From: Deltaproteobacteria bacterium
Lineage (GTDB): Bacteria; Desulfobacterota; Desulfobulbia; Desulfobulbales; Desulfurivibrionaceae
Length of the DNA: 64,000 nt
NCBI GenBank assembly: GCA_013349295.1
Contig: DUZW01000010.1
Location: 1 to 64,000 of the forward strand
Direction of reading: 5' to 3'
Below the pieces are notes generated by a model, which was not told the DNA's origin, searched no databases, and saw nothing but the letters and a program-made list of their open reading frames with translations. The translations under genes were made by a program, and so were the position numbers. Every line of letters begins with the position of its first letter. Within the stretch, counting starts at the first letter, position 1. This document shows positions 7,091 to 62,678 of the stretch, one piece after another.

Positions 7091-7205
7091 CGCGTCGCTC
7101 CTGAAGATTGTTGAAATCACAAAAAAACACGATTTCAACAGTTATTCCCTGGTAACTCTTCATTATTACGTTGCAGAGCCGTGGCCTTTTATACCCACGA
7201 GTCCG

Positions 7206-19426: not shown

Positions 19427-19887
19427 GCTCCTTGGCCTCCGTGCCGTCTCAATGGTTGATGGTCGTCCACTAACTAATAAAGAAGGGACAATGACAATGA
19501 TATCACGCCTTCTCCATGCGCTTCCTGTCTCCAGCGAGCCGAAAATATAGCAGGCTGCCGCCACGCTGTCAAAATTCTTTCAAGGACGGCCAAAAACACC
19601 TTCTCCAAAAAACCCTTATCTTTTCGTAACGATCCAGCTTAATGCCGGAATCGGACAAAAACCACGAAATGTAACTGTTCAGCAGTACCACAGATGCGCG
19701 AAAGAAGTCTGCGAAGCGTGCTATTGCACATGAGCAGGCCGACGACAAAGCAGATGTGACACTGCTGAACAGTTACTTCTTTTCAAGATTCTTTCCCTTG
19801 ACACGACAAAGCCGTTCATAGCAATATGAGCCCAGAAGCATGCGGATGTAAGGATATTTTACCAGCAGGACCATAACAGGAGACGCC
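19427..19887. other. Intergenic region between hemL and the 19888 gene
   Basis: 461 bases between two divergent genes. It must hold the hemL promoter and that of the plus-strand operon. The only structure I can support is the 106-bp inverted-repeat element at 19671-19776, annotated separately. A ribosome-binding AGGAG sits before the GTG at 19888. Confidence 0.6.
19671..19776. repeat. 106-bp inverted-repeat element, copy A (full length)
   Basis: Perfect 16-bp terminal inverted repeats GTAACTGTTCAGCAGT / ACTGCTGAACAGTTAC. Its interior matches copies B (29556-29661, reverse orientation) and C (57817-57924) over nearly the whole length. A central small hairpin (GTGC-TATT-GCAC) is present in all three, with changed loop bases. 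No target-site duplication and no ORF are seen. It resembles a MITE or an extended palindromic intergenic repeat. Confidence 0.85.
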
Positions 19888-22482: not shown

Positions 22483-22515
22483 CCCGCTCCATGCCGCGGA
22501 CTAACACCACGAAAT

Positions 22516-22562
22516 CGAACTGTTCAACAAAGCCGGAGAGGTGCTGGTGCTGAACAGCTACG
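22516..22562. repeat. Inverted-repeat element, short copy E
   Basis: CGAACTGTTCA ... TGCTGAACAGCTACG carries the ends of the 106-bp element with most of the middle missing. It shares the flank ACCACGAAAT on its left with copy A. It lies between parA and the next gene. Confidence 0.6.
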
Positions 22563-27374: not shown

Positions 27375-28709
27375 ATGAAGAAGTTACTGATTATACTCAT
27401 GTTCGCCCTTGTTCCCCTGTCCCTGCTCGCCCAATCGGCCCTGGCCGCTGGCGGCCCCCCGACGGATATTCTCAAAGGGGTTATTACCGAAGTGAATGAA
27501 GCGGACCGCACCATTGTCTTCCAGAAACATGAAAACAAGGAATTCATGACCCTCACTCTTGGCGCTGATATGAAGCCCGAGGAGATGCGGATGAACAAAA
27601 AGGTCCTGATCAGCCTGGATAAAAATGCCGGGGAAAATGTGATGAAGGATGTCTCCATCATGTTCATGGACATGACCGCCAGCAAACTCCTGGCCCTGCT
27701 CGTCATCGGTCTGATTGGCGGCTTGCTCTCCGGCTTCATCGGCTCCGGCGGCGCCTTTGTCATGACCCCGGCCATGATGTCCCTGGGCGTCCCCGGCGCC
27801 GTAGCCGTAGCCAGCAACATGTGTCACAAGTTCCCCAAGGCCATGATCGGTGCCTACAAGCGGTGGAAATACGGACAGGCTGACATCAAGCTCGGTCTGG
27901 TCATGGCCACCACCGCCGTCCTCGGCGTACAGATCGGGATCATGATCCAGAAATCAATCCTGAACTCTTTTGGCAATGCCGGTTCAAACCTCTATGTTTC
28001 CACGATTTTCATGATTGTTCTCGTTTTTGTCGGCGGCTATGTCTTCTATGATGCATGGAAACTCGCCAAGGGCGACGGCAAAGAGACCGTAAGCAAACTG
28101 GCCGTACGCATGCAGAAGATTCAGCTTGCACCCATGATGCACTTCAAAACCGCCAAAGTGACCATCTCCGCCTGGATCACCATCCCGGTCGGCCTGTTCA
28201 CCGGCATGCTCGCAGCCACTATCGCGGTGGGCGGCTTCATCGGCGTTCCCGGCATGATCTATGTAATCGGCGCCTCCGCCGTGGTGGCCAGCGCCACCGA
28301 GTTGATCATCGCCTTTGTCATGGGCGCTTGGGGTTCCGTACAGTGGGGTCTCTCCGGCCTTATCGATATCCGCCTCTCCCTGCTGCTTCTGGCCACCTCC
28401 CTCATCGGCGTACAGCTTGGCGCCTTGGGTACCACCTATGTCAAGGACTACATCATCAAAGTGGTCATGGCCACCACCATGCTCATCGTTGCCGTAAGCC
28501 GCGGCGCCAAGATTCCCGGCTACCTGGCCGATCTTGACCTGATGACCCCGATGAGCGATCCCATTCACGCCCTGCTTGAAAGCGTCAGCTTCTGGGCACT
28601 GGTAACCGCCCTCGGCTCCGCCGGTCTCATCATCACCGTAGCCATGGTGAAGGGGATGTCCGCCGACCGCGATGCCAAAAAAGCCCTTGCCGGAGTCAAC
28701 CATGGCTAA
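27375..28709 (+). CDS. TauE/SafE-family permease with secreted N-terminal domain
   Basis: 444 residues. A signal peptide (MKKLLIILMFALVPLSLLAQ, cut near ALA-AGG) leads to a periplasmic beta-rich domain at about 25-105 (GVITEVNEADRTIVFQK, KKVLISLDKNAGENV). The TauE/SafE body follows with eight or so helices and its two repeated motifs: GLLSGFIGSGGAFVMTPAMM and GMLAATIAVGGFIGVPGMI. The family exports or imports sulfite, sulfoacetate, thiosulfate and other small sulfur-containing or organic anions. The extra periplasmic domain is not usual. GGAGATATACC precedes the ATG. It overlaps the Usp gene by 8 bases. Confidence 0.9.
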   Translation: MKKLLIILMFALVPLSLLAQSALAAGGPPTDILKGVITEVNEADRTIVFQKHENKEFMTLTLGADMKPEEMRMNKKVLISLDKNAGENVMKDVSIMFMDMTASKLLALLVIGLIGGLLSGFIGSGGAFVMTPAMMSLGVPGAVAVASNMCHKFPKAMIGAYKRWKYGQADIKLGLVMATTAVLGVQIGIMIQKSILNSFGNAGSNLYVSTIFMIVLVFVGGYVFYDAWKLAKGDGKETVSKLAVRMQKIQLAPMMHFKTAKVTISAWITIPVGLFTGMLAATIAVGGFIGVPGMIYVIGASAVVASATELIIAFVMGAWGSVQWGLSGLIDIRLSLLLLATSLIGVQLGALGTTYVKDYIIKVVMATTMLIVAVSRGAKIPGYLADLDLMTPMSDPIHALLESVSFWALVTALGSAGLIITVAMVKGMSADRDAKKALAGVNHG

Positions 28710-29559
28710 ATACCGAAAGATCCTCGTTGCCTACGACGGTTCCCCTTCGGCCAAAAGCGCACTCTCCCTGGCAAGCCAGCTTGCCAGGGAGGACAAGAGC
28801 TGGATCAAGGTTCTGGCCGTTGTGCCGCCCTACCAGGGGGACTTGGAACTTATCGGGGTTTCGGATATCAAAGAAACCATTACCGGACCCGGCCAGAATC
28901 TGCTGGCCGAAGCCCGAGAGCTGGCGGACCGCGAAGGGGTAAACATCCTGACCAATCTGGAACAGGGTGAACCCTATGAGCAGATTGTCCATGTCGCCGA
29001 GGAAGAAAACTGCGATCTCATCGTCATGGGCCGCAGGGGCAAAGGCTCGGTGGAGCGGGAACTCATGGGCAGCGTGACCGCCCGAGTCATCGGACATACC
29101 CGCAAGGATGTCCTAGTCATCCCGGAAAACGGCCAGCTCTCCTGGGAGAATGTCCTGCTGGCCACGGACGGTTCAACCTGTTGCGACAATGCCCTGGCCA
29201 GAGCCCTGGAGATAGCCCAGGAACGAAAGGCAAAACTCTCAGCGGTTTCCGTGGTCTACACCAATGATGAGTTTTACGCCCTCGGTCAGGAAGTCGTGAA
29301 GGAACTTTACCGGGATGCGGACAAGGTTCTCGACAAGGTAAAAAAATGGGCCGGGGATCTCGGGGTGAAAGCGGAACTGTTTGTGCGGGATGGCGAGCCC
29401 CATCAGGCCATCACCGCCATGGCGTCGGAAATCTCCGCCAGCCTTATCGTCATGGGTTCCCATGGCAGGAAAGGCTTGACCCGCCTGCTCATGGGCAGCG
29501 TCACCGAAAGGGTTATCGGCTATGCAGACTGCCCGGTCCTGATCTGCCACCTGTCGTAA
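28702..29559 (+). CDS. Tandem universal stress protein (two Usp domains)
   Basis: 285 residues. Domain 1 (residues 1-145: KYRKILVAYDGSPSAKSAL ... GRRGKGSVERELMGSVTARV) and domain 2 (150-285: NVLLATDGSTCCDNAL ... GSHGRKGLTRLLMGSVTERV) both carry the GxxGx9GS ATP-binding loop. The ATG at 28702 overlaps the permease stop by 8 bases. The stop TAA (29557-29559) is the beginning of repeat copy B, so the present C-terminus was set by that element. Last gene of the sigma-54 operon. Confidence 0.95.
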   Translation: MAKYRKILVAYDGSPSAKSALSLASQLAREDKSWIKVLAVVPPYQGDLELIGVSDIKETITGPGQNLLAEARELADREGVNILTNLEQGEPYEQIVHVAEEENCDLIVMGRRGKGSVERELMGSVTARVIGHTRKDVLVIPENGQLSWENVLLATDGSTCCDNALARALEIAQERKAKLSAVSVVYTNDEFYALGQEVVKELYRDADKVLDKVKKWAGDLGVKAELFVRDGEPHQAITAMASEISASLIVMGSHGRKGLTRLLMGSVTERVIGYADCPVLICHLS

Positions 29560-29661
29560 CGGTCCAGCAGCACCGCATCTGCGTTGTCATCGGTCGGCTC
29601 GTGTGCAACAGCACACTTCGCCGACCTCTTCCTAGCAGCCACGGTGCTGCTGAACCGTTAC
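29556..29661. repeat. 106-bp inverted-repeat element, copy B (full length)
   Basis: GTAACGGTCCAGCAGCACCG at the left end pairs with CGGTGCTGCTGAACCGTTAC at the right (19 of 20 bases). The reverse complement aligns with copy C along its whole length, including the central GTGTGC-TGTT-GCACAC hairpin. The left end overlaps the final codon and stop of the tandem Usp gene. Confidence 0.87.
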
Positions 29662-29709
29662 GTTTCTTTATTTTTTCCAATTTTCGGCTCTGTGCTGGAT
29701 GGTTACCGC

Positions 29710-31954: not shown

Positions 31955-31997
31955 CTAACTGTTCAGCAGTGCTGCAGATGCGGTGCTGTTGAACGAT
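31955..31997. repeat. Inverted-repeat element, shortened copy D
   Basis: CTAACTGTTCAGCAGTGCTG joined almost directly to CGGTGCTGTTGAACGA, that is the two ends of the 106-bp element without its middle. It encodes the end of NikO on the minus strand (SFNSTASAALLNS and the TAG stop). Confidence 0.7.
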
Positions 31998-32746
31998 TTT
32001 CCACTGCAAATCGGACAGCCCTGCATGGCAAAAGGCTTTTCCAACCGGCAGGCGGCAAGCAACGCTTCATCCCGGAAAATCTCGTAAGTCGGACCATCGG
32101 CCCTTACCTCCCCCTCGTGCAGGACGATGGTCCGCTCGCACAGCTCCAAAACCATATCCAGATCATGACTGGTAAAGATCCTGGTATGATGAAAGTCTTT
32201 CAACAGCCCCATGAGCTGTCGCCGGGCAAAAGGATCAAGCCCGCTGGTCGGCTCATCCATGACCAGGATGTCCGGCGACATGGCCAAGACCGTGGCAATG
32301 GCCACCCGTTTCTTTTCTCCGCCGGAGAGGTGGTAGGGCGGCTTGTCGCGCAGATGTTCGGCCCCTACCCTGGCCAAGGCGCCCCGCACCCGCTCTTCCA
32401 CCTCAGCCCCGGACAAACCAAGATTCAGCGGGCCAAAGGCCACATCGTCAAAAACAGTGGGCATGAACAGCTGGTCGTCCGGATCCTGAAAAACCATCCC
32501 CACCGTACGCCGGATCTCGGGCAGGGTGGCGGTGGTCAGGGGAAAATCGCCGATGCGGATCGCGCCCTGGCTGGTTGCAAGATAGCCGTTCAAATGAAGT
32601 AGCAGGGTGGATTTCCCCGCGCCGTTGGCGCCGATGATCGCCACCGATTCTCCATGGGTAATCCGGAAGGAGACACCCCGCAACGCCTCGGTTCCATCGG
32701 AATAGACATGACGCAGATCCTTGACCTCGACAATATGATGGCTCAT
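31955..32746 (-). CDS. nikO: ECF-type nickel/cobalt transporter ATPase NikO (CbiO-like)
   Basis: 263 residues from MSHHIVEVKDLRHVYSDG. Walker A GANGAGKST, Q loop VFQDPDDQLFMPTVFDDVAF, signature HLSGGEKKRVAIA, Walker B ILVMDEPTSGLDP and switch His (TSHDLDMVLEL) are all intact. The start overlaps the nikQ stop. The last 13 codons and stop derive from repeat copy D and have no family character. Nickel rather than cobalt is favoured by the divergent nikR. Confidence 0.94.
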   Translation of the reverse strand: MSHHIVEVKDLRHVYSDGTEALRGVSFRITHGESVAIIGANGAGKSTLLLHLNGYLATSQGAIRIGDFPLTTATLPEIRRTVGMVFQDPDDQLFMPTVFDDVAFGPLNLGLSGAEVEERVRGALARVGAEHLRDKPPYHLSGGEKKRVAIATVLAMSPDILVMDEPTSGLDPFARRQLMGLLKDFHHTRIFTSHDLDMVLELCERTIVLHEGEVRADGPTYEIFRDEALLAACRLEKPFAMQGCPICSGKSFNSTASAALLNS

Positions 32747-57771: not shown

Positions 57772-57816
57772 GCGAGGAAAGCGGCACGCAAACGACCGCT
57801 TGGTGCCGAAAATGGA

Positions 57817-57924
57817 GTAAACTGTTCAGCAGTGCCGCAGATGAGCGAAAGAGGTCTGCGAAGTGTGCTGTCGCACACGAGCGGGCCGATGACAACGCAG
57901 ATGCGGTGCTGCCGGACAGTTTAC
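57817..57924. repeat. 108-bp inverted-repeat element, copy C (full length)
   Basis: GTAAACTGTTCAGCAGTGCC pairs with GGTGCTGCCGGACAGTTTAC. The centre contains GTGTGC-TGTC-GCACAC, and the interior matches copies A and B. It lies between the convergent crp-type and relA/spoT genes, and its right end supplies the stop codon (TAA, 57921-57923 on the minus strand) of the latter. Confidence 0.87.
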
Positions 57925-60035
57925 TGCTCCAACCCGAACTCAAAGACCATCCCGGTCTTGGCAAGGTGGACGAGAATATTCTTGAGCCCTTGCAAGGTAT
58001 CGACCTGGAAATTTATCTGCCAGGCGGAGGTGCGCGACGGCACACTGGAAAGCAGCTCGATCTCGCTGATCCTCATCTCTTCCGGAGCAACGCCCAGCAT
58101 CATCAGAACACGGTTGCGAGACGGGGCATTCAGAATGAGGATGGTCTGCCTCTTGGGCACCAGCGTTTCCTTGAGCCGCCAGCGCACCTCCACCACATCC
58201 TCCCGCTGGGCATGGAGAGAGGTAATCGTGGTACATTCCTTCTGGTGAATGGAGAGGCCGCGTTCGCTGAGCAGGCCGTACAGTCCTTTGTCCGTGGGCC
58301 CAGGGTTGCAGCAGCGGGAAAACTTGATACACACCGGATCCAGGGTGGCAAGTTCGATACGGTTCAAGCTGCCGGTGGGAGGCTGAAGGGTTTCCCGGTT
58401 GGCATACAGCCGGCTTTTGATCTCGTGGATCAATTCACGCAGGCGAAATCTGCCCTCGCCCAGACCAAGAAAGAGATCCGGCAGTTCTCTTGCTCCGAGA
58501 GTTGCCATGATATTTTCCATGCCCGGTTTTTCCAGAATATCAGAAGGCAACCCATAACGCTTAAGCTCTTGCAGGAGGATGCTCTGGCCGATCATGCCGC
58601 TCAGAGCCTCTCGCCGCTGGCGGAACAGCTTGGCGAGTTCCGCCCGGGCTCTGGGGGTCTGACAGAGCTGCTGGATTTCCGGCTCGAAACGCACCGGATC
58701 CTTCTGACAGATGATCTCCACCTGATCGCCGTCTTCAAGAAGGGAGTCGGGCTCCACCTGACGCTTGCCTATCTTGGCTTTGATGCAGCGCTTGCCCACA
58801 TCCGTGTGGACCTTGAAGGCAAAATCCAGCACGATACTGTGAACGGGCAATTCAACGGGGTCGCCCTTTGGGGTATAGGTATAGATAGCTTTCTTGCTGC
58901 TGACCGCAATCATCTCCCGGTAGGAGAGATCCTCATCCGTCCCCAGGATATCCAGCATCTCCCGCAATTCCACTTCAAAACCGGTGGGCACCTTCTTGTG
59001 GACAAACCACTCCTGCACCAAGCCGGTGCGGGAGGAATTTATCATCTCGGCGGTGCGGATCTTGAACAGATAGTTGGCCCCCTTGATATTGGCTCGGGTA
59101 TGCAGACTCTGATAACCGGTGGCCTTGGGGTTGGCGATAAAGTCCCGGATGGTTCTGGGGATGGGTGGATAAGTCTGGTGAATAACCCCGAGAATCCGGT
59201 AGCAGGTCTGGATATCGTTGGTGACGATGATGAATTCCAGGGGGTTGGCGATGGTTCTGTGCAAAAGCTTGTGAGCCGGATCAAAGTAGGCCCAGAGGCC
59301 CTTGGGGTTGAGGCGGATTTCGTGGGTGATCCACGCCTCCTTCATCCGCGCCTCAAGGGTGCGCTTGATGGCCAGCACCTCTTCGCTGTTCTGCAACCGT
59401 TTGATGGCGGCCTGCACCTTCTGGCTCTGCCGCGGAAATTTGTACATCAAGGCCAGGGTGTACAACTCGCGCTTGATACTGTTCAAGCCCATGACCTTGG
59501 CCAAGGGCGCATAAATATCCAAGGTTTCATCGGCAATTTTCTGCCGCTTATCCTTGGGCATGGAGCCCATGGTCCGCAGGTTGTGCAGCCGGTCGGCCAG
59601 CTTGACCAACAAAACTTCAAGGTGAGCTGCGGCGCCTGAGAAAAGCTTGCGATGAACCAACTTGTAAAAAGTCTGTTTGTCTCCGGAGAAATTGGCGATC
59701 TTGGTGCAGGCATCGACAATGGTCTCGATGTTCTTGCCGAAAATCTCGCCGATCACCTCGCTGGTCACCTCGGGGACGTCCTCCACCGTGTCGTGGAGCA
59801 CGGCGGCGGCGAGCAACTCCGGATCACGGATATCCAGCTCCTCCACCAGAATTTTTGCCACCTGAAGGGGATGGCTGACATAGGCCTCGCCGGACTTGCG
59901 CCGCTGGTCCTGATGGGCGGAAACGGCAAAGGAGAGCGCCTCCCAGAAGACCTTGGCCGGACCTTCCTGCCCACCGAGAAGCTCTTCCATGCGCTCGCAA
60001 TAGGCGGCTATGTTAAATTTTCTGGATGATGCCAT
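57921..60035 (-). CDS. RelA/SpoT homologue, hydrolase intact, synthetase apparently degenerate
   Basis: 704 residues with HD hydrolase (about 30-190), synthetase-like region (about 230-370), TGS (about 400-460) and C-terminal ACT. Hydrolase motifs are present: RRKSGEAYVSHP, LHDTVED, LADRLHNLRTM. In the synthetase region the RxKHxYS loop reads NPKGLWAYF, the catalytic Asp of the family (DLxAxR) is Asn (NPLEFII), and the catalytic Glu (IEIQIRT) is Leu (YLFKIRT). GYQSLHT is retained. It may act only as a (p)ppGpp hydrolase. The stop is inside repeat copy C. Confidence 0.92.
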   Translation of the reverse strand: MASSRKFNIAAYCERMEELLGGQEGPAKVFWEALSFAVSAHQDQRRKSGEAYVSHPLQVAKILVEELDIRDPELLAAAVLHDTVEDVPEVTSEVIGEIFGKNIETIVDACTKIANFSGDKQTFYKLVHRKLFSGAAAHLEVLLVKLADRLHNLRTMGSMPKDKRQKIADETLDIYAPLAKVMGLNSIKRELYTLALMYKFPRQSQKVQAAIKRLQNSEEVLAIKRTLEARMKEAWITHEIRLNPKGLWAYFDPAHKLLHRTIANPLEFIIVTNDIQTCYRILGVIHQTYPPIPRTIRDFIANPKATGYQSLHTRANIKGANYLFKIRTAEMINSSRTGLVQEWFVHKKVPTGFEVELREMLDILGTDEDLSYREMIAVSSKKAIYTYTPKGDPVELPVHSIVLDFAFKVHTDVGKRCIKAKIGKRQVEPDSLLEDGDQVEIICQKDPVRFEPEIQQLCQTPRARAELAKLFRQRREALSGMIGQSILLQELKRYGLPSDILEKPGMENIMATLGARELPDLFLGLGEGRFRLRELIHEIKSRLYANRETLQPPTGSLNRIELATLDPVCIKFSRCCNPGPTDKGLYGLLSERGLSIHQKECTTITSLHAQREDVVEVRWRLKETLVPKRQTILILNAPSRNRVLMMLGVAPEEMRISEIELLSSVPSRTSAWQINFQVDTLQGLKNILVHLAKTGMVFEFGLEQ

Positions 60036-60347
60036 AGATAGTCACTGTCTTTCTTAGCCGGTCATGGGTAATATGGATGATCTGCACCTGTAAATAAGGT
60101 ACAATTATCGCACCAGGATCTTAAGAGCTTGTCCGTAATCAAGCTCTTAGTAAGGGTATTTCGTTCTCAGCCCTTGTGCAATGATTTTCCATTTCTTTAA
60201 CTAAAGAAAACGTAACTCTTCAGCAGCACCAAGGATACGCGTACCGATCAGCGGCGGTAGTTCCGACAGACAAAAAGTCCTGCTGACTGTGCTATAGTAT
60301 TGCACATAGGTAAGCCGATGACAAAATAGCCGGGGAGAAGCAAGCCT
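60036..60347. other. Intergenic region between relA/spoT and rnr
   Basis: 312 bases between divergent genes. TAAGAGCTTG-TCCGTAAT-CAAGCTCTTA (60122-60149) is a perfect 10-bp stem with an 8-base loop, probably a structured leader or operator. A diverged copy of the inverted-repeat element (60212-60334) takes up most of the rest. No ORF is credible here. Confidence 0.6.
60212..60334. repeat. Inverted-repeat element, diverged copy F
   Basis: GTAACTCTTCAGCAGCACC matches the left end of the 106-bp element and TGTGCTATAGTATTGCACA resembles its central hairpin. The following GCCGATGACAAAATAG matches the interior of A to C (GCCGATGACAACGCAG). The right end is lost. Confidence 0.55.
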
Positions 60348-62678
60348 GTGACACATAAAAAGAGGATTTCCCACAGCAAACACGGTCGGCCTGGGAAACG
60401 ACAACGCGAGGGCGGCGGCAGGGTGGTGCGCCAACACCAGGAAGCGCGGTTTGAAAGCGAGATTCTGGGCAAGCTCTACACTGCGGAGATGCCACTTTCA
60501 GCACAGGATCTTTTTAAGACTCTTGGGCTGACCAAGAGCCACCGACAGGAGGTGCTGGGGGTGCTTGATGATCTCTGTCGGCGCAAGGTTCTTTCCTGCC
60601 GCAAGGATACCTTTGCCTTGCGCAAGAGCGTAGAGCTGTTTGCCGGCCCGATCAGCGTGACCACCAAAGGCTATGGCTTTGTCGCCCCCACCGAGGCCCC
60701 GGCCGAACTGGAGATCGACCAGGACGTCTTTATCCCCCCCGGCATGCTGGGCGGCGCGGCCCACAGCGACAAGGTGCTGGTCCAATTGATGAGCCGCCGC
60801 CAAGGCCGTTACGAGGGGCGGGTGGTCGCGGTCCTGACGCGGGCCACCAACCGACTGGTCGGGGTCTACATGGCCGGAGGCAATACCGGGCTGGTAACCC
60901 CGGAGGACACTCGCTTTCCCTACAATCTGATTATCCGCAAGGAGGACAGCCGTGGGGCCAAAAACGGCGACGCGGTTTTGGCCGAGGTCACCTCCTTTGC
61001 CGCCGGACAGCGCAATCTTGACGGCATCATCCTCGAGGTACTGGGCAATCCCAAGGATATCCAGGTGCAGACCGAAATGGTCATCCGCAAATTCGACCTG
61101 CCCCATGTCTTTACTCAGGAAGTGACCGGACAGGTGGAATCCCTGGACCCGGAGGTAAAAATGTCCGCCTCCCGCACAGACCTGCGGAATGTGGTCCATG
61201 TGACCATCGACGGGGAAACAGCCCGCGATTTTGATGACGCCGTAGCCATCGAACCCCTGAAGAACGGCTATCGGCTCTATGTCTCCATCGCCGATGTCAG
61301 CCATTATGTACGACCGCAAACCCCGGTGGATATGGAGGCCTACCAGCGCGGCACCAGCGTCTATTTCCCCACCCGGGTCATCCCCATGCTGCCGGAGCGG
61401 CTCTCCAACAACCTCTGCAGCCTGGTGCCCGACGAGGACCGCTACACCTTCACCGCCATGCTTGATTTTGACGAGCACGGCAAGCGGCTGGGCAAGCGCT
61501 TCATGAAGAGCATCATTCGCAGCAAGTATCGCCTCACCTACACCATAGTCAAACAGATCCTGGTGGACAAGGATGAAACGGTGCGCAGCCGGTACGCCGA
61601 CATGGTGGAGGATCTCGAACGCATGGGCCGGCTGGCCCTGAGCCTGGAAAAACGCCGAACCAAGCGGGGGAGCATCGGCTTTGAGCTCCCGGAGCCCTTG
61701 GTGGTGCTGGGCGAGGACAACACCGTGCAGACCATCAAACGAAGCGAGCGCAATCAGGCCCACAAACTTATTGAGGAATTTATGCTCGCCGCCAACGAGG
61801 CGGTGGCCGAGGCTCTGGACCAGGGCAAGATCGACTCCCTCTACCGGATCCACGAACCGCCCGACCAGCTCAAGGTGGCGGAGTTCACCGAGTTTGCCCA
61901 GAGCATGGGGCTTAATGTCGACGACGGCGGCGGCTCTCCCCAGTGGTTCGGCAAAGTGCTGGCCATGGCGGCGGGCACCCCCCAGGAATACATCATCAGC
62001 AATCTTCTGCTGCGCACCATGCAGCAGGCCCGCTACTCCCCTCACAATCTCGGCCATTTCGGCCTGGCCGCCACCCACTACACCCATTTCACCTCCCCCA
62101 TCCGGAGGTACCCTGACCTCATGGTCCACCGGGCCTTGGCTGCAAGCTTACAAAAGAAGGGGGCTCCAAAAACCGGCCCCGAGGCGGTCTCCACCGAAGA
62201 GTCGGGAGGATTTCTTTCCAAACGGGAGCGGGTAGCGGTGGAGGCCGACCGGGAGATGGTGGAACGGCTTCAGGTCCATTTCATGGCCGATAAGATCGAC
62301 GAAACCTTTGAGGCCATTATCTCCGGAGTCACCGCCTTCGGTTTGTTCGTCGAACTGACCGAGATCTTTGTCAACGGCGCCGTACCCATCACCGAGATGC
62401 GTGATGATTATTACCAACTGGAAGAGGGGCGCCACCGGCTCATCGGCCAGAGAACCAAGACCGTCTTCCAAATCGGCGACCTGGTACGGGTGCGGTTGAC
62501 CAGCGTGGAGATCCCCAGGCGGCGGATCAATTTCACTGTGGAAGAAAAGCTAGCCCGCGCCACGGATCTTGTCCAATCTGCCCCTCGCAAACGCAAAGCA
62601 ACTGCGGCTCAAGGCGAGGCCAAACCCCGCAAAAAAACCGGTGCCCAGCCAAGAAAACGTCCCGTGAAAGACAAATGA
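60348..62678 (+). CDS. rnr: Ribonuclease R
   Basis: 776 residues with a GTG start (GGGGAGA upstream). RNase R is a 3'-5' exoribonuclease of the RNB family. N-terminal helix-turn-helix region, two cold-shock domains, RNB catalytic domain with TIDGETARDFDDAVAIEP (metal-site Asp cluster) and YVSIADVSHYVRPQTP, and an S1 domain near the end (SGVTAFGLFVELTEIFVNG). It closes with a basic Lys/Arg-rich tail. Stop and next start overlap (ATGA), so trmJ is coupled. Confidence 0.96.
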   Translation: MTHKKRISHSKHGRPGKRQREGGGRVVRQHQEARFESEILGKLYTAEMPLSAQDLFKTLGLTKSHRQEVLGVLDDLCRRKVLSCRKDTFALRKSVELFAGPISVTTKGYGFVAPTEAPAELEIDQDVFIPPGMLGGAAHSDKVLVQLMSRRQGRYEGRVVAVLTRATNRLVGVYMAGGNTGLVTPEDTRFPYNLIIRKEDSRGAKNGDAVLAEVTSFAAGQRNLDGIILEVLGNPKDIQVQTEMVIRKFDLPHVFTQEVTGQVESLDPEVKMSASRTDLRNVVHVTIDGETARDFDDAVAIEPLKNGYRLYVSIADVSHYVRPQTPVDMEAYQRGTSVYFPTRVIPMLPERLSNNLCSLVPDEDRYTFTAMLDFDEHGKRLGKRFMKSIIRSKYRLTYTIVKQILVDKDETVRSRYADMVEDLERMGRLALSLEKRRTKRGSIGFELPEPLVVLGEDNTVQTIKRSERNQAHKLIEEFMLAANEAVAEALDQGKIDSLYRIHEPPDQLKVAEFTEFAQSMGLNVDDGGGSPQWFGKVLAMAAGTPQEYIISNLLLRTMQQARYSPHNLGHFGLAATHYTHFTSPIRRYPDLMVHRALAASLQKKGAPKTGPEAVSTEESGGFLSKRERVAVEADREMVERLQVHFMADKIDETFEAIISGVTAFGLFVELTEIFVNGAVPITEMRDDYYQLEEGRHRLIGQRTKTVFQIGDLVRVRLTSVEIPRRRINFTVEEKLARATDLVQSAPRKRKATAAQGEAKPRKKTGAQPRKRPVKDK

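What the first reader, a model, noticed from the sequence alone, without database searches (positions are those of the whole stretch)
19671..19776. A dispersed 106-108 bp inverted-repeat element with full, short and decayed copies
Full copies A (19671), B (29556, inverted) and C (57817), short copies D (31955) and E (22516), and a decayed copy F (60212) are in one 64 kb window. Ends are GTAAC(N)GTTCAGCAG with 16- to 20-bp terminal inverted repeats, and the middle holds a conserved small hairpin. No ORF and no obvious target duplication. Size and structure suggest a MITE or a REP-like element, moved by an enzyme elsewhere.
Basis: seen in the sequence. Interest (0 to 1): 0.7.

Follow-up and report, generated by a model that had tools for sequence, protein, structure and literature searches.

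The report
IS66-type MITE with a folded core
The repeats are copies of a 151-base jumping element with no genes of its own, whose ends match those of a known class of mobile elements (IS66, ISBst12 group), but it also carries a folded core kept across a whole order of sulfur bacteria and its older copies sit right behind the stop codons of genes.

Summary
Two corrections matter.

(1) The mobile unit is not the 106-bp palindrome. In copy A it is 151 bp (19626-19776): a 45-bp left arm that begins with a third copy of the terminal repeat, plus the palindrome. It is flanked by a near-perfect 8-bp target duplication (ATCTTTTC/TTCTTTTC). Same-genus relatives have the empty site. Over 136 copies, 26 have an exact 8-bp duplication at the predicted place, against 0.35 expected.

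(2) The source is an IS66-family (ISBst12 group) element, not a RAYT. A 1,729-bp single-ORF IS66 element in another family of the same order has the same 15-bp end (GTAACTATCCAGCTT) and an 8-bp duplication. The published ISBst12-group ISDge4 has GTAACTGCTCAGCA ends and an 8-bp repeat. No IS66 transposase was found in 17 genomes of the window's genus, so mobilisation is in trans or extinct.

The genome holds about 60-70 copies, and the family spans the order. Unusual features: the core's stems covary across families while key loop bases stay fixed, with a bias toward G-U on one strand. All 112 copies examined are intergenic. Old copies (34/53) abut an opposite-strand stop codon more often than young ones (5/20).

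The parts
19618..19625 (+). Copy A: left target duplication ATCTTTTC
   Evidence: 7 of 8 bases equal to 19777-19784; empty site in same-genus relatives
19626..19670 (+).
   Evidence: same 45-nt arm in many copies; absent from the empty sites
19671..19776 (+). Copy A: palindrome R2 - conserved core - R3 (the 106 bp of the finding)
   Evidence: 119.2 bits
19777..19784 (+). Copy A: right target duplication TTCTTTTC
29556..29661 (-). Copy B: palindrome, core on - strand; the TAA of its terminal GTAAC (29557-29559) is the stop codon of the Usp-family gene 28672-29559
   Evidence: 121.3 bits; empty site CCACCTGTAATC in about ten relatives
29662..29706 (-). Copy B: left arm with R1 (GTAACCATCCAGC read on - strand)
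57788..57816 (+). Copy C: truncated left-arm remnant (GCAAACGACCGCTTGGTGCCGAAAATGGA)
   Evidence: alignment from 57798; the first 10 bases by eye
57817..57924 (+). Copy C: palindrome; its end contains the stop codon of the RelA/SpoT-type gene 57921-60035 (-)
   Evidence: 118.8 bits; element present at the same place in most same-genus relatives
31955..32000 (+). Copy D: palindrome whose core is deleted between the two GCAGATGCG boxes; overlaps the TAG stop codon of the ABC-transporter ATPase gene on - strand
22483..22561 (+). Copy E: decayed copy with left arm and core mostly lost, intergenic
60212..60326 (+). Copy F: decayed copy with a rearranged core, upstream of the gene called at 60423

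Best explanation
A 151-bp non-autonomous transposon (MITE) of the IS66 family, ISBst12 group. Unit: outer repeat R1 (GTAACTRTYCAGC) plus a 45-bp left arm, then R2 - about 75-nt folded core - R3, with R3 inverted to R1 and R2. Shown: fixed 8-bp target duplications at R1/R3, empty sites in relatives, and an autonomous single-ORF IS66 element with the same ends in the same order. Inferred: an ISBst12-type transposase acting in trans cuts or copies at R1 and R3 and inserts the unit with an 8-bp stagger; that enzyme is absent, or not assembled, in the genus today. Also inferred: copies landing immediately behind stop codons are kept preferentially because the terminal GTAAC restores an in-frame TAA and the hairpin is tolerated, or useful, in the gene's 3' region. 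Arm mutations are then matched on the other arm by template-switch copying, by selection on the fold, or both.
For: Copy number and spread. Empty site of A in same-genus relatives, defining a 151-bp insert plus duplication. 26 of 136 copies have an exact 8-bp duplication at the predicted distance, against 0.35 with permuted flanks. An unbiased scan of about 0.8 Mb of fetched loci for [8-mer][RTAA...TTAY][same 8-mer], up to 6 kb apart with similar ends, returned only units of 77-292 bp with these ends. Autonomous relatives: L226 1343-3071 (ends GTAACTATCCAGCTTGCG / GTAACTATCCAGCTCAAA, duplication GAATATTT) and L228 915-2522 (GTAACTACTCAGCC ends, TAATACAG). Both proteins exceed the NCBIfam IS66 cut-off (290 and 310 bits against 180) and are 39% identical. 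Published ISDge4, ISBst12 group: ends GTGACTACTCAGCA / GTAACTGCTCAGCA, repeat CCTCGATG (PMC12898284). 112/112 copies intergenic. Stop-codon abutment 5/20 young against 34/53 old independent places, Fisher p 0.004.
Against: No IS66 transposase in any of 17 genus genomes, so the enzyme is not shown to act here. About half of the copies lack R1 or a duplication and are only inferred to be old insertions. A unit with R1 and R3 but no core (77 bp, L198) shows that the core is not strictly needed, or was lost after insertion. The gene calls come from a small codon-usage script, not a standard annotator.
Confidence: 0.88

Rival explanations
1. The palindrome is foremost a structured RNA (or single-strand DNA) element: the folded core is the functional part, selected for recognition by a protein or ribonuclease, and transposition is only how it spreads.
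For: Across 31 matches from about a dozen genera 96.3% of paired cells pair, 32 of 36 pairs show changes on both sides, and covariation is 0.68 against 0.19 shuffled and 0.05-0.08 slid. Unpaired or key bases (AGAUG/AGAUG boxes, AAG, GGCCGAU.AC) are nearly fixed. In columns without a G-U consensus, G-T mispairs outnumber A-C 58 to 7 (p 4e-11), so one strand's fold is favoured. Genus copies: 16 of 36 pairs with double changes.
Against: In the genus set the G-T/A-C bias rests mostly on six columns with an inherited G-U state. Inverted-repeat arms can be homogenised without selection. Older copies lie mostly antisense to tandem genes (43:15), so mRNA carries the less well-paired strand. One core-less 77-bp unit has a perfect duplication.
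Confidence: 0.35
2. Arm covariation is a by-product of DNA replication: template switching in the quasipalindrome copies one arm onto the other, so perfect stems with new sequences arise without selection.
For: Outer arms change to quite different but perfect palindromes (L015, L018, L028). Small inverted modules have been added inside the core of some relatives, as template switching would give. The mechanism is documented (PMC8794818, PMC7202029).
Against: It does not predict the G-T over A-C bias or fixed unpaired loop bases across families.
Confidence: 0.45
3. REP-like palindrome mobilised by a RAYT/Y1 transposase.
For: Short palindrome, many intergenic copies, three Y1_Tnp genes in the genome.
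Against: Fixed 8-bp target duplications; ends equal those of an IS66 element; Y1 loci lack these repeats.
Confidence: 0.02
4. The preference for stop codons is insertion-site preference, not later selection.
For: Even young copies abut stop codons in 5 of 20 places against about 1.4% for random intergenic points. The spoT stop codon was hit with at least two junction types in the genus.
Against: The fraction rises from 25% (R1 + duplication) through 48% (R1 only) to 64% (neither), and the orientation bias appears only in older classes (6:7 against 43:15).
Confidence: 0.3

Closest known systems
ISBst12 group of the IS66 family (e.g. ISDge4 of Deinococcus geothermalis, PMC12898284)
   Same: GTAAC(T)-YTCAGC(A) terminal repeats, 8-bp target duplication; autonomous relatives with one IS66 transposase ORF found here in the same order (L226, L228)
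   Different: The present unit has no ORF, is 151 bp, has an extra internal copy of the end (R2) and a conserved folded core not found in the IS66-bearing loci
Bacterial MITEs in general (Correia/NEMIS, RUP, ERIC; reviewed in PMC2229807)
   Same: Short, non-coding, terminal inverted repeats, many intergenic copies, RNA-like hairpins
   Different: The duplication here is 8 bp and the ends are of IS66 type; one core is shared across families of an order while the ends diverge
REP elements / RAYT (PMC3733652, PMC2817692)
   Same: Extragenic palindromes at gene ends
   Different: REPs are 20-40 bp and tagged GTAG or CGTC (PMC3733652 abstract); no target duplication is expected; not linked to Y1 genes here

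Membership tests
IS66-family (ISBst12-group) derived MITE | Terminal inverted repeats equal to those of an autonomous IS66 element | tested here: met
   R1 GTAACTATCCAGCTT is identical to the end of L226 1343-3071; ISDge4 ends GTAACTGCTCAGCA
IS66-family (ISBst12-group) derived MITE | 8-bp target duplication | tested here: met
   26 exact of 136 against 0.35 expected; empty site for A
IS66-family (ISBst12-group) derived MITE | No transposase ORF inside the unit | tested here: met
   Units are 77-292 bp
IS66-family (ISBst12-group) derived MITE | Cognate transposase in the same genome | tested here: not met
   PF03050: none in G000 or in 17 genus genomes; present in 39 of 116 genomes of the order. 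Not a strict requirement for a MITE
IS66-family (ISBst12-group) derived MITE | Mobilisation in trans by that transposase | not testable with these tools
   Needs an experiment
REP/RAYT | No fixed-length target duplication | tested here: not met
   8-bp duplications
REP/RAYT | Repeat copies flanking the Y1 transposase gene | tested here: not met
   None in L031-L033
Known structured RNA family (Rfam 15) | Score above gathering threshold | tested here: not met
   No match in the window; only one chance-level hit in six loci
Correia-type or RUP-type MITE | 2-bp TA target duplication (from general knowledge) | tested here: not met
   Duplications are 8 bp with no TA core

The most novel reading that the evidence does not exclude
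The core is a new, order-wide structured RNA or single-strand-DNA module that IS66-type MITEs carry as cargo or as a mobilisation aid, and that host genes repeatedly adopt as a hairpin at their stop codons.
Probability: 0.3. Interest if true: 0.75.

Novelty: new variant of a known kind. Interest (0 to 1): 0.5.

Why it matters
No paper found in the searched open library links a MITE to the ISBst12 group, a group whose active transposition was reported as first seen only in 2026 (PMC12898284). The unit has an unusual three-end design and a fold kept across an order while its ends diverge, so it can separate 'palindrome kept by template switching' from 'palindrome kept by selection'. The spread of copies behind stop codons gives a dated series of insertions with which the conversion of mobile hairpins into gene-end hairpins can be tested.

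Tried and rejected
Classic IS66 in the own genome or genus: none. RAYT link: none. Rfam: none. Copies in viral contigs, phages, plasmids: none found with an exact core pattern or blastn. A coding role for the palindrome (one frame is open in the genus consensus) was rejected by eye: length changes between families break the frame. A kink-turn or hammerhead reading of the core was considered by eye and dropped: strand order and loop sizes do not fit.

Full report
WHAT WAS CLAIMED AND WHAT IS THERE. The 15-base end occurs 8 times in the window with up to 2 mismatches, against 0.26 expected. A, B and C score 119-121 bits with a covariance model built from 23 copies. D is a copy that lost its core between two GCAGATGCG boxes. 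E and F are decayed but significant (62 and 53 against shuffled maxima of 28 and 34). The genome (2.9 Mb, 66 contigs) holds at least 40 BLAST copies (limited by a cap) and about 60-70 places by covariance search. All 17 genomes of the genus have 20-101 matches, counting both strands, and 34 of 38 relatives in the order have at least one.

BOUNDARIES. Aligning the place of copy A with same-genus relatives (L113-L127) shows an insert of 151 bp, window 19626-19776, between CCCTT and TTTTC. The extra 45 bp on the left begin with a third copy of the end, GTAACGATCCAGC (R1), 45 bp before R2. The flanks read ATCTTTTC and TTCTTTTC. Over 136 copies from the genus and other families, 26 have an exact 8-bp duplication at the tested distance of R1 (38-53 bp upstream of R2); permuting right flanks among copies gives 0.35. 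A scan for any [8-mer][RTAA ... TTAY][same 8-mer] up to 6 kb apart in about 0.8 Mb of fetched loci returned only units of 77-292 bp with these ends. The mobile unit therefore runs from R1 to R3, and R2 is an internal, inverted extra end that makes the right two-thirds a hairpin.

WHOSE ENDS THEY ARE. GTAA ends with 8-bp repeats pointed to IS66 (from general knowledge). The genus has no IS66 transposase (PF03050). In the order 39 of 116 sampled genomes do. Most of those tested have other ends, but two single-ORF elements match. L226 1343-3071 (1,729 bp) ends in GTAACTATCCAGCTTGCG and GTAACTATCCAGCTCAAA with duplication GAATATTT; L228 915-2522 (1,608 bp) ends in GTAACTACTCAGCC with duplication TAATACAG. 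Both proteins are IS66 transposases by NCBIfam, 39% identical. The ISBst12-group element ISDge4 is published with ends GTGACTACTCAGCA / GTAACTGCTCAGCA and repeat CCTCGATG (PMC12898284). The element is thus an ISBst12-type MITE. That the enzyme acts in trans, and that it has been lost from the genus, is inference; assemblies may also miss multi-copy IS elements.

ORGANISM. A DNA scan of named genomes with the left-arm sequence hit only Deltaproteobacteria/Desulfobulbaceae genomes (RIFOXYD12_FULL_55_16, LacPavin MAGs, SKS MAGs, UBA2273, UBA11700). The order is therefore taken to be Desulfobulbales (for the lineage).

THE CORE. RNAalifold finds 36 pairs, 16 with double changes within the genome. 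In 31 matches from other genera and families, 96.3% of cells pair, 32 of 36 pairs have changes on both sides, and the covariation score is 0.68 against 0.19 in shuffles and 0.05-0.08 when slid. The set contains two loci read on both strands, and the alignment was fitted to the model, so the figures lean somewhat towards the structure. Key bases are nearly fixed across families: the two AGAUG boxes, which pair as A-U, tandem G.A, U-A; AAG; and GGCCGAU.AC. G-T mispairs exceed A-C mispairs 58 to 7 outside G-U-consensus columns. In the genus alone the same bias comes mainly from six columns. This suggests, but does not prove, that one strand's fold (RNA or single-strand DNA) is under selection. 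Template-switch copying of arms can explain perfect arms with new sequences (PMC8794818) but not the loop conservation or the G-T bias. A 77-bp unit without the core still has a perfect duplication (L198), so the core is not strictly needed for mobility or was lost afterwards.

WHERE COPIES SIT. All 112 genus copies examined are intergenic (own codon-usage gene caller). The R3 end often abuts the stop codon of an opposite-strand gene; at offset -4 the TAA of the terminal GTAAC is itself the stop codon. Collapsing orthologues gives 100 places: abutment 5/20 for copies with R1 and duplication, 13/27 with R1 only, 34/53 with neither (young against old p 0.004). Antisense:sense in tandem genes is 6:7 in the young and 43:15 in the rest. 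Random intergenic points give about 1.4%. So there is some preference at insertion plus retention. At site C (spoT) most of 16 relatives carry an element at the same stop codon, with at least two junction types, while one is empty with TGA. At site B six species carry it between the stop codon and the gene's own terminator while about ten have the empty CCACCTGTAATC-type site; two of the six lost the left arm but kept the hairpin. Why antisense copies last longer is open; a hairpin close to the next gene's start in sense orientation may be harmful (inference).

LIMITS. Genomes other than the window's are unnamed and many are fragmented. Duplication plus R1 is a proxy for age. No expression data were available.

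VERDICT. A well-supported MITE of a known IS family, with an unusual internal third end and an order-wide folded core that deserves an experiment.

Noticed in passing
window about 7110-7139 (-); L127:2752, L157:1361, L200:78: A second, unrelated dispersed palindrome, GTTGWAATCGCGGCTTTTTGCGATTTCAAC, often preceded by ATCAAATGG; it occurs in this window and in same-genus relatives.
   Followed up: partly
L191, L193, L196, L201-L204, L206; site B and C orthologues L241, L246, L248, L250, L252, L253, L267, L269: Small hairpin-like modules (e.g. AGCTAAGCGAGC..GAGACTGCG, CGCCGCTTCGCTGCTGCCGC) are inserted at fixed loop positions of the core in several species, as if by template switching or copy-to-copy conversion.
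   Followed up: partly
L031, L032, L033 (G000 C1, C29, C36): Three Y1_Tnp (IS200/RAYT-type) genes in the genome, not linked to this repeat.
   Followed up: partly
L034, L070, L166, L168, L088, L110: Subfamilies with different but matching outer ends (GTAACTATCCAGC, GTAATCGTTCACC, GTAAGCGTTCACCAAGGG, GTAACCGATCACGGGG) share the same core, as if one core had been paired with several end types.
   Followed up: partly
L066 183-474: A 292-bp unit with the same kind of ends and an exact 8-bp duplication (TAATTTGA); its interior was not examined.
   Followed up: no
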